Shown here: positions 19,905 through 22,067 of the stretch, in pieces
How the letters are laid out: the number at the start of each line of letters is the position of its first letter
Position numbering within the stretch: the stretch's first letter is position 1
Source of the DNA: Nitrospirota bacterium
Lineage (GTDB): Bacteria > Nitrospirota > Thermodesulfovibrionia > Thermodesulfovibrionales > Dissulfurispiraceae
Assembly: GCA_023476565.1 (NCBI GenBank)
Contig: JAMCVZ010000042.1
Location: 1-46,842, forward strand
Direction: 5' to 3'
DNA length: 46,842 bases
Program-made: the position numbers and the translations under genes
Notes under the pieces: generated by a model
What the model saw: the letters and a program-made list of their open reading frames with translations, nothing else
Told to the model about the DNA's origin: nothing
Databases searched by the model: none

Positions 19905-20510
19905 TTAATAGCTCTTTCCCCTCTGAGGAGCTCCCGATGACGGTGTTTCCTCCCAATAGGGGGTCACGCCATAGTACCGGTGAACCTCCGAGCCCCACTG
20001 CTGGTTCGCAAAATCGGGCCAATTGTTCTTGGCGAATCCCGGTGCATTCTTAAGTTTTTCTTTATCAACATTGAGGACAAGGTTATCACCGCTTGCGCTC
20101 GTTGACAGGGCCTTCCAGGGAATAGCGAAGTACTTTTCGCCTATCCCGAGTATGCCGCCTGCACCGAGGACTGCGTAAGCTATACGGCCTGTGTTTTCAT
20201 CAATTGCTATATCTTTTATGTCCCCGAGGCTCTCTCCCTGGGGATTCTTTACATCCATGCCTATGATTTTGCTGGCCCTGTCCATCTTGCGCGTTGATGG
20301 TGCTGTTGACGTCGGCGCAGTGCCCCTGGTCGATGTATCACTCTGCATGTCGGTGCCCCCCCTGGCGTCTCCGCCGCCGCTCTGCATATCGGCTCCGCCG
20401 GTCGACATATCCCCTCTCGTTCCTGACCGGTCATAACCGGCAGCAAAGACACTGAAGGCCAGAAGCAAACTAAAAGTAAATACCACCGCAACAATACCTC
20501 TTTTTCTCAT
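19905..20510 (-). CDS. Exported PRC-barrel domain protein
   Basis: A 201-residue protein with a signal peptide (MRKRGIVAVVFTFSLLLAFS, cleavage near AFA/AGY, about residue 24). A Gly/Ser/Thr/Asp-rich linker runs to about residue 75. A PRC-barrel domain follows (SKIIGMDVKNPQGESLGDIK and IDENTGRIAYAVLGAGGILG, then YFAIPWKAL). PRC-barrels mediate protein or RNA contacts, and exported versions are common in stress-responsive surface proteins. GGAGG precedes the ATG. It stands alone with its own promoter. The exact role is unknown. Confidence 0.85.
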   Translation of the reverse strand: MRKRGIVAVVFTFSLLLAFSVFAAGYDRSGTRGDMSTGGADMQSGGGDARGGTDMQSDTSTRGTAPTSTAPSTRKMDRASKIIGMDVKNPQGESLGDIKDIAIDENTGRIAYAVLGAGGILGIGEKYFAIPWKALSTSASGDNLVLNVDKEKLKNAPGFAKNNWPDFANQQWGSEVHRYYGVTPYWEETPSSGAPQRGKSY

Positions 20511-20815: not shown

Positions 20816-21859
20816 TCAGCGCATCAACGGGAAGGATGCAATAGGTGACTGCCCGCGGGACTGCTCTATGACTTTATCCAGCCTGGTCTTTATCAAAATA
20901 TCCTGATTATCAGCCAGTGTCTTTGGGATGATCACAGTAATGCCGAAATGCTCTTTAAGAAGGTTCAACTCCGCATTATAATCTTCGTTGCCGGATGGAT
21001 TGATCAAAGGGGCGTTTATCGTTATTTTATTTTCTTTCAGGTATTTGATTATTTCATGTATATGGTTCAATCCTATAGTCAACAATGCCTTTTTGCGCTT
21101 TATGTTACCCTGCCTGAATTCATCCTCTATAACCTCAGGAATTCTCTGGAGCATAGCCGCTGTTCTCCTCTGCTGCAGGTATTCCATTTCAGCTTTCAGG
21201 GCATTGTATTCGGCCAAATCATCATTGGAACTCTCAACCCTGTAAATACCGTCAACGACCGCATCGTACAATTTCCGGTCCTCTATTTGCTGCAGTTTCA
21301 GAAAGTAATTCTCCTTCAGCAGGATCTCCGCATTTATAAAAATGCTGTCATCGGAGAGCTTCTTTTCGACCTCTTTGATATCCAGCAACTCTGCAATCCT
21401 GCCCTTTTCATATCCGATCTTGACAACACCCCCTTTCTCGAGCTTTTTCGCTTTCTTGAAAAAACCCTCAGGCAGAAGGAGCTCCAGCATTTCGTTCTTA
21501 ACCAGCCATTCCCCTATCTTATAGGCTTCGGCCTGTGCCCGCGCGGTGGTGCTTCCGTTAGAACGGCTTAGGGTATCCCTGTGGCTCATACCGATGATAT
21601 AAAGGTGGTTTGGGCTCTCTTGATTGCAGCGGTATACGACTTCCCCATACGCTTCCGGGAGTGTAAGATTTACAGGTGGCCGGCCTGATTCGGCCCACGA
21701 GAAGGAACTATACACAAAAAGCATGAGGATAATTGCCTGGAATAGCAGCACTTTCCGGATGCCCGGCAGATAGGCTTTCCCGGGGAAATACCCGGACGCC
21801 GGACGGCAACCGTTTATACAGGCGATACTCCGGGAAGATGAAGCTCCGTTAAGGCCCAC
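20816..21859 (-). CDS. Exported protein of unknown function under c-di-GMP riboswitch control (TraB/GumN-like features)
   Basis: A frame of 347 codons from GTG at 21859, with AAGGAG 10 bases upstream. A hydrophobic export or anchor segment follows the first 35 residues (KVLLFQAIILMLFVYSSFSWAE); the extended N-terminus means a start further in is possible. The mature part begins with HLYIIGMSHRDTLSRS and later has KALLTIGLNHIHEIIKYLKE. Two G-x-x-H-type blocks, one near each end, with an ELLLPEG strand after the first, recall the TraB/GumN/TIKI superfamily of metal-dependent peptidase-like proteins. The resemblance is weak and from memory. The middle is helical and charged. Because its mRNA carries a GEMM-I aptamer, its output should follow the motile/sessile signal c-di-GMP. 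Function not known. Confidence 0.6.
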   Translation of the reverse strand: MGLNGASSSRSIACINGCRPASGYFPGKAYLPGIRKVLLFQAIILMLFVYSSFSWAESGRPPVNLTLPEAYGEVVYRCNQESPNHLYIIGMSHRDTLSRSNGSTTARAQAEAYKIGEWLVKNEMLELLLPEGFFKKAKKLEKGGVVKIGYEKGRIAELLDIKEVEKKLSDDSIFINAEILLKENYFLKLQQIEDRKLYDAVVDGIYRVESSNDDLAEYNALKAEMEYLQQRRTAAMLQRIPEVIEDEFRQGNIKRKKALLTIGLNHIHEIIKYLKENKITINAPLINPSGNEDYNAELNLLKEHFGITVIIPKTLADNQDILIKTRLDKVIEQSRGQSPIASFPLMR

Positions 21860-21861
21860 TG

Positions 21862-21919
21862 CTGCACTACTCCTTCACAAACCGGACGTGCTCTTATTTA
21901 TTAACCGGAGGAGTTGCAG
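21862..21919 (-). promoter_or_regulatory. Expression platform hairpin masking the Shine-Dalgarno
   Basis: On the minus strand, CTGCAACTCCT (21919-21909) can pair with AGGAGTAGTGCAG (21874-21862), which holds the AAGGAG ribosome site of the downstream gene; CCGG words inside can extend the stem. It lies directly after the aptamer, so a translational on/off switch is likely. Confidence 0.7.
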
Positions 21920-21936
21920 TCACTGATGATGCATCT

Positions 21937-22012
21937 GGCAATCCCGCTATCGTAGAGACAGAGCTCGTTCAGACCGGTGATTTTGCGCCTCCACCTTTCG
22001 ATGGATTTGCCT
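21937..22012 (-). ncRNA. Cyclic di-GMP-I (GEMM-I) riboswitch aptamer
   Basis: The minus strand shows the GEMM-I core in order. GGCAAATCC (P1/P2 start, 22011-22003) is followed by a GAAA tetraloop hairpin (CCATCGAAAGGTGG), then GGCGCAAA, then ACCGGTCT...P3 stem and CTACGATAGCGGG (tetraloop receptor side). GGGATTGCC closes P1 against GGCAAATCC. Every conserved block of the family is present with correct spacing. It would bind c-di-GMP and control the gene at 20816-21859. Confidence 0.93.
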
Positions 22013-22038
22013 TTTTTCAGATTTAAATTTCAGTGTGA

Positions 22039-22067
22039 GTATAACGGAAAGCCGGCAGCCCAGTCAA
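22039..22067 (-). promoter_or_regulatory. Promoter of the riboswitch transcript
   Basis: TTGACT (22067-22062), a 17-bp spacer and TTATAC (22044-22039) on the minus strand put the start near 22032, about 20 nt before the aptamer. Confidence 0.7.

What the first reader, a model, noticed from the sequence alone, without database searches (positions are those of the whole stretch)
21862..22067. Complete c-di-GMP-I riboswitch with promoter and SD-masking hairpin
Promoter, GEMM-I aptamer and a hairpin burying AAGGAG can all be read. This gives a full translational switch model for a gene of unknown function.
Basis: partly seen in the sequence, partly recalled or inferred. Interest (0 to 1): 0.7.

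Follow-up and report, generated by a model that had tools for sequence, protein, structure and literature searches.

The report
c-di-GMP-I riboswitch before exported-protein gene
A well-formed RNA sensor for the bacterial signal c-di-GMP sits in front of a gene for an exported protein of unknown function in a Nitrospirota-related genome; it is a new example of a known kind of switch, and the way it controls the gene is plausible but not shown.

Summary
On the minus strand there is a sigma-70-like promoter (22067-22038), a textbook c-di-GMP-I (GEMM-I, RF01051) aptamer (22021-21934, 71.9 bits, E 2.9e-12) and a hairpin that pairs AGGAGU of the ribosome-binding site with ACUCCU, 10 nt before a GTG start (21859). 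The position that selects c-di-GMP over cGAMP is G. Aptamer and gene belong together: homologues in two other genomes outside the family also carry GEMM-I in front, and these three aptamers group together among 26. In the only congener held, the leader is a GEMM relic (20.6 bits) without its pocket, yet the masking hairpin is kept. The 'full translational switch model' is only partly supported. Aptamer and hairpin can coexist, and the site is masked in both computed states. The hairpin is no stabler overall than shuffles, and its pairing is moderately unusual (119 of 5000 shuffles). A competing apo fold suggests c-di-GMP turns translation OFF, but that is inference. The gene has no Pfam or NCBIfam family. 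Its predicted fold is nearest, weakly, to ChaN, HopBA1 and erythromycin esterase (Tiki superfamily). New member of a known kind; modest interest.

The parts
22038..22067 (-). sigma-70-like promoter: -35 TTGACT 22067-22062, 18-nt spacer, -10 TATACT 22043-22038
   Evidence: -35/-10 conserved in G022, G027, G028 leaders, readable in G024
21934..22021 (-). c-di-GMP-I (GEMM-I) riboswitch aptamer; G20-equivalent at 22011, A47-equivalent at 21984, GAAA tetraloop at 21999-21996
   Evidence: (71.9 bits, E 2.9e-12); positions by alignment to the Rfam consensus
21933..22022 (-). P1 closing helix AUCUG (22022-22018) / CAGAU (21937-21933); pairing kept in L045 (AUCUG/CGGAU) and L072 (UUCUG/CAGAA, one double change)
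   Evidence: sequence
21905..21919 (-). anti-SD arm CUGCAACUCCUCCGG of the masking hairpin
   Evidence: its first 12 nt identical in G022
21862..21885 (-). SD arm of the masking hairpin: CCGG 21885-21882, AGGAGU 21874-21869, UGCAG 21866-21862; SD AAGGAG 21875-21870
21876..21894 (-). candidate anti-sequestor strand (AGAGC, CGU, CCGGU, UUGUG) that could pair with the aptamer (21987-21960) in the ligand-free RNA
   Evidence: not significant against shuffles nor by exact-strand conservation
20816..21859 (-). controlled gene, GTG start, 347 aa, predicted hydrophobic signal segment (residues ~32-55) and a tentative ChaN/EreA/Tiki-like domain (residues ~64-335)
19905..20510 (-). downstream PRC-barrel gene, about 300 bp away with a promoter-like sequence of its own; neighbour of the gene in G028 and G746 too; probably not under the riboswitch

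Best explanation
This is a genuine c-di-GMP-I riboswitch that controls translation of one downstream gene, an exported protein of an unnamed family. Transcription starts about 7 nt after the -10 box (inferred). The aptamer folds and binds c-di-GMP (inferred from sequence; binding not tested). The ribosome-binding site lies in a hairpin with an upstream anti-SD. Most likely direction: without c-di-GMP the nascent RNA can fold so that the 5' strand of P3 and the A47 region of the aptamer pair with 21894-21876, which breaks the pocket and delays the masking hairpin, so translation is possible. With c-di-GMP the aptamer is held together, the hairpin closes, and translation is OFF. Shown: aptamer, its conserved pocket, promoter conservation, hairpin and its retention in the congener, and recurrence of similar aptamers before homologous genes. 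Inferred: ligand binding, the translational level, the OFF direction.
For: Aptamer at 71.9 bits; G at the ligand-selecting position. The genome has 15 GGDEF matches and a second GEMM-I. GEMM-I also precedes the homologous gene in L045/G402 (78.0 bits) and L072/G746 (77.6 bits). The three aptamers form one group among 26 (local support 0.99; 72% identity of the window aptamer to each, next best 64%), while other GEMM-I of the window's genome (L002) and of G402 (L060, L063) fall elsewhere. SD/anti-SD duplex p~0.024 and its conservation in G022. Opening the SD costs 5.3-6.5 kcal/mol in the free RNA and 6.9-8.2 with the aptamer enforced. Before the SD is transcribed the competing apo fold is -36.7 kcal/mol against -26.6 for the enforced aptamer. 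Vc2 is called a translational OFF switch in PMC9262584, and c-di-GMP-dependent trapping of an RBS is reported for Bc1 (PMC11218506).
Against: The whole leader is no more stable than shuffles. The SD is computed as masked with and without the aptamer. The energy bias toward OFF shrinks to 0.3 kcal/mol when more of the coding region is included. The apo helix is not unusual in energy (1415 of 5000 shuffles), and its exact strands are not preferentially conserved. Only one congener was available. Most homologous genes lack a GEMM-I at Rfam's threshold.
Confidence: 0.6

Rival explanations
1. ON switch: c-di-GMP binding stabilises the aptamer and indirectly opens the SD hairpin, so translation rises with c-di-GMP, as expression does for Vc1/gbpA in Vibrio cholerae.
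For: Vc1 promotes expression with c-di-GMP and lacks an obvious anti-SD or terminator (PMC4744006); in one free fold the 5' P1/J1-2 strand AAGGC pairs with GCCUU just after the start codon, and the aptamer would compete with that.
Against: The masking hairpin does not overlap the aptamer and stays closed when the aptamer is enforced; the AAGGC/GCCUU pairing is lost in longer folds and its downstream strand is absent in G022.
Confidence: 0.2
2. The aptamer works through transcription (Rho or mRNA stability) and the SD hairpin is incidental.
For: The hairpin is only moderately unusual; Bc1 shows that GEMM-I can act at two levels (PMC11218506).
Against: No intrinsic terminator-like site lies between aptamer and start codon; anti-SD and SD arms are preferentially conserved in a congener whose aptamer has decayed.
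Confidence: 0.17
3. The ligand is 3',3'-cGAMP or another cyclic dinucleotide (GEMM-Ib).
For: GEMM-I members that bind cGAMP exist in Geobacter (PMC8835794), and position 20 is a selectivity factor, not a hard filter (PMC9262584).
Against: The G20-equivalent is G; the cGAMP-bound form studied on the GEMM-I scaffold is G20A (PMC6274999).
Confidence: 0.06
4. A decaying relic with no function left in this genome.
For: The congener's leader is such a relic (20.6 bits), and most homologues lack the element.
Against: Full-length 71.9-bit match with pocket, tetraloop and P1 intact; close to intact copies in two distant genomes.
Confidence: 0.04

Closest known systems
c-di-GMP-I (GEMM-I) riboswitch, Rfam RF01051; Vc2 and Vc1 of Vibrio cholerae
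   Same: Aptamer sequence and fold, G at position 20, A at 47, GNRA tetraloop, P1/P2/P3, 5' leader of a gene for an exported protein (Vc1 precedes gbpA, a secreted protein; PMC4744006)
   Different: Readable anti-SD/SD hairpin (Vc1 has no apparent one, PMC4744006); different gene family; ligand binding and direction unmeasured here
cGAMP-selective GEMM-Ib riboswitches (Geobacter)
   Same: Same clan and overall fold
   Different: G, not A, at the ligand-selecting position
Tiki/ChaN/EreA superfamily proteins (ChaN 2g5g, EreC 6xcq, HopBA1 5t09, BcR135 3b55)
   Same: Top structural rows at Z 7-9 (BcR135 about 6); two GxxH histidines, one Glu and an Arg, invariant in the family
   Different: Z is near the typical background maximum; the second catalytic Glu (two residues before the first His) is absent; no Pfam, NCBIfam or TraB profile match

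Membership tests
c-di-GMP-I riboswitch (RF01051) | Covariance-model score above Rfam gathering (35 bits) over the full model | tested here: met
   71.9 bits, positions 1-87, E 2.9e-12
c-di-GMP-I riboswitch (RF01051) | Ligand-contact bases G20 and A47 of Vc2 (named in PMC4744006) | tested here: met
   G at 22011 and A at 21984 by alignment to the Rfam consensus. The C92-equivalent appears to be C at 21938, less certain because the Vc2 numbering was recalled from memory
c-di-GMP-I riboswitch (RF01051) | GNRA tetraloop in P2 and a P1 helix | tested here: met
   GAAA loop; AUCUG/CAGAU P1, with pairing kept in L045 and L072
c-di-GMP-I riboswitch (RF01051) | 5' leader position, same strand, upstream of a gene | tested here: met
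   74 nt upstream of the GTG at 21859
c-di-GMP-I riboswitch (RF01051) | Binds c-di-GMP and changes structure | not testable with these tools
   needs in-line probing or ITC
cGAMP GEMM-Ib riboswitch | A at position 20 | tested here: not met
   G at the equivalent position
Translational SD-masking riboswitch | SD paired in one ligand state and free in the other | tested here: inconclusive
   SD computed as paired in both; an alternative fold exists without statistical support
Tiki/ChaN/EreA superfamily (protein product) | Common parallel beta-sheet core | tested here: inconclusive
   VIA-align Z 8.7 to ChaN, 8.0 HopBA1, 7.3 EreC, 6.2 BcR135 with a pLDDT 84 model; Foldseek no match at E <= 0.001
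Tiki/ChaN/EreA superfamily (protein product) | 2His/2Glu plus Arg active-site set (PMC6254334) | tested here: inconclusive
   H93, H266, E131 and R232 invariant in 12 members and 16 members, but the Glu two residues before the first His is absent
TraB/PrgY/GumN (PF01963) | Profile match above cut-off | tested here: not met
   no match for any of 12 members, none in the whole genome; hhalign to family TraB proteins probability 2%

The most novel reading that the evidence does not exclude
An unnamed family of exported Tiki/ChaN-like proteins is an old c-di-GMP riboswitch target whose aptamer travelled with the gene across phyla and was lost repeatedly. In the congener G022 the leader kept its SD-masking platform after the sensor died or changed ligand, giving a ligand-blind or re-tuned leader.
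Probability: 0.15. Interest if true: 0.5.

Novelty: new member of a known kind. Interest (0 to 1): 0.3.

Why it matters
It adds a previously unnamed exported protein family to the likely targets of c-di-GMP riboswitches. Its aptamer is shared with distant homologues and has decayed in a close relative, so the same leader can be compared with and without a working sensor. The switch itself is of a well-known class, so the general interest is modest.

Tried and rejected
Whole-leader fold stability as evidence for the hairpin: rejected, z ~0.1. Anti-sequestor helix by duplex energy: not significant. A hand-picked set of conserved blocks (64/67 identical) looked striking, but it was chosen after seeing the alignment; with the exact predicted strands the anti-sequestor is 26/36 (p 0.51), so I do not rely on it. 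I suspected GEMM relics in G027/G028 by eye; neither Rfam nor a family model with filters off finds one. Pfam, NCBIfam and PDB sequence searches for the protein gave nothing meaningful, and profile comparison with TraB nothing. Foldseek alone ranked unrelated P-loop ATPases first, none better than E 0.1. A first covariance model (R1) had P2 out of register and was replaced by R2. Literature searches for the Tiki superfamily and for GEMM in Nitrospira were mostly noise.

Full report
What is there. The features are on the minus strand. Rfam's c-di-GMP-I model (RF01051) matches 22021-21934 over its full length at 71.9 bits, E 2.9e-12; nothing else in the 46.8 kb window reaches a gathering score. 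The match has the GAAA tetraloop, G at the position equivalent to Vc2 G20 (22011), A at the A47-equivalent (21984) and a 5-bp P1 (AUCUG/CAGAU). Upstream is TTGACT-18-TATACT (22067-22038). A single such site is near chance in a scan, but the same -35 and -10 boxes recur in front of the homologous gene in three other genomes of the family and can be read in a fourth. Downstream, AAGGAG (21875-21870) lies 10 nt before a GTG (21859) that opens a 347-codon ORF. AAGGAG followed by a weak start codon (GTG or TTG) recurs in G022, G027 and G028, which supports this start.

The masking hairpin. CUGCAACUCCUCCGG (21919-21905) pairs with CCGG, AGGAGU and UGCAG (21885-21862). The last four bases of the SD are unpaired with probability near zero. 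The leader as a whole is not more stable than shuffles (z 0.12 and 0.14). The SD/anti-SD duplex is reached by 119 of 5000 shuffles of the platform. Its strands are 26/30 identical in the congener G022, against 98/145 elsewhere in the leader (Fisher 0.026, 8 of 174 shifted masks). So the hairpin is moderately, not strongly, supported.

Does it switch? With the Rfam aptamer structure enforced, and without it, the SD is computed as masked, so hairpin plus aptamer is not yet a switch. Opening the SD costs 5.3-6.5 kcal/mol in the free RNA and 6.9-8.2 with the aptamer; the difference favours OFF with ligand but falls to 0.3 kcal/mol in the longest RNA. For transcripts that end before the SD, the best fold pairs ACCGG, ACG and GCUCU of the aptamer with 21894-21881, and CGCAA with UUGUG is added as the SD emerges (aptamer 21987-21960 with 21894-21876). 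This destroys the pocket: -36.7 kcal/mol against -26.6 for the enforced aptamer. It is a reasonable anti-sequestor and predicts translational OFF. However, the best aptamer-platform duplex energy is matched by 1415 of 5000 shuffles, and the exact strands are not preferentially conserved (26/36, p 0.51). I treat OFF as the most likely direction by inference only. No terminator-like site lies between aptamer and start codon.

Ligand and context. G at position 20 predicts c-di-GMP and not cGAMP (the cGAMP-bound GEMM-I scaffold studied is G20A, PMC6274999; position 20 is a selectivity factor, not a hard filter, PMC9262584). The genome has 15 GGDEF matches and one other GEMM-I, upstream of an HU-like gene. 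In the family of 31 genomes, 12 have GEMM-I, many upstream of genes whose products begin with a signal-like sequence (judged by eye). That is how GEMM elements are usually placed (own knowledge).

The gene and its relatives. The product has no Pfam or NCBIfam match. Homologues are rare: 5 of 31 genomes of the family, 9 of 396 of the phylum, 5 of 395 of the phylum of G402, one of these only a marginal match. GEMM-I stands in front of the homologue in L045 (G402, a MAG labelled Deltaproteobacteria) and L072 (G746), not in the others at Rfam's threshold. If one gene in 1000 follows a GEMM-I, two further hits in 17 loci have probability about 1e-4 (a rough figure that treats loci as independent). 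Among 26 GEMM-I sequences, the window, L045 and L072 aptamers group together with local support 0.99, while other GEMM-I of the window's genome (L002) and of G402 (L060, L063) fall elsewhere. So the aptamer and the gene probably share history, by descent or joint transfer. The protein tree cannot separate these (long branches, weak forks).

Decay in the congener. In G022 the homologous leader scores 20.6 bits, E 7.9e-5, with the family model and 16.9 bits with RF03167. J1/2 GGCAAA became GGGCAGG, J2/3 CGCAAA became CGCCCUG, the tetraloop became GGGA and the base of P3 is broken. The pocket is therefore gone, while promoter, anti-SD arm, SD arm and start are kept. The G022 contig is from a low-coverage MAG (record title gives 1.9x), so single differences may be errors, but hardly the whole pattern.

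Fold of the product. A model of the domain (pLDDT 84) aligns best with ChaN (Z 8.7), HopBA1 (8.0), EreC (7.3) and, lower and among unrelated rows, PMT and BcR135 (same set). ChaN, HopBA1, PMT and BcR135 are listed as Tiki-superfamily structures in PMC6254334, which also places the Ere family with them. Two GxxH histidines (93, 266), E131 and R232 are invariant. The second Glu of that paper's 2His/2Glu set is missing, Z values are near the usual background maximum, and Foldseek found nothing significant. I call this a tentative assignment. The downstream PRC-barrel gene is a neighbour in G028 and G746 too but is about 300 bp away behind a promoter-like sequence.

Verdict. The interpretation as a c-di-GMP-I riboswitch with an SD-masking hairpin is supported; the full switch model is not shown. 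This is a new member of a known kind, with a modestly interesting evolutionary setting.

Noticed in passing
L002:1501-1589 (-), own genome contig C57: Second GEMM-I (68.2 bits), about 190 nt upstream of an HU-like DNA-binding protein gene; an unusual-looking target.
   Followed up: partly
L004:1613-1718 (-) (G022): GEMM-I relic in the homologous leader with the ligand pocket lost but the SD hairpin kept.
   Followed up: yes
L046:1668-1749 (-): Weak GEMM-like match (21.3 bits, E 1.5e-4) divergent to a truncated copy of the same gene family.
   Followed up: no
G018:C95 3807-3884 and 3991-4070 (L028, L013): Two GEMM-I aptamers in tandem on the same strand.
   Followed up: no
family genomes: The five genomes with this gene have no PF01963 TraB protein, while 15 of the other 26 do (Fisher about 0.026, computed by hand; relatedness not corrected); possibly alternative proteins for one role.
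   Followed up: no
L006, L007 leaders (G028, G027): Leaders of similar length share ACCGG and UCCGGU-AAGGAGU blocks with the window leader although no GEMM is detectable.
   Followed up: partly
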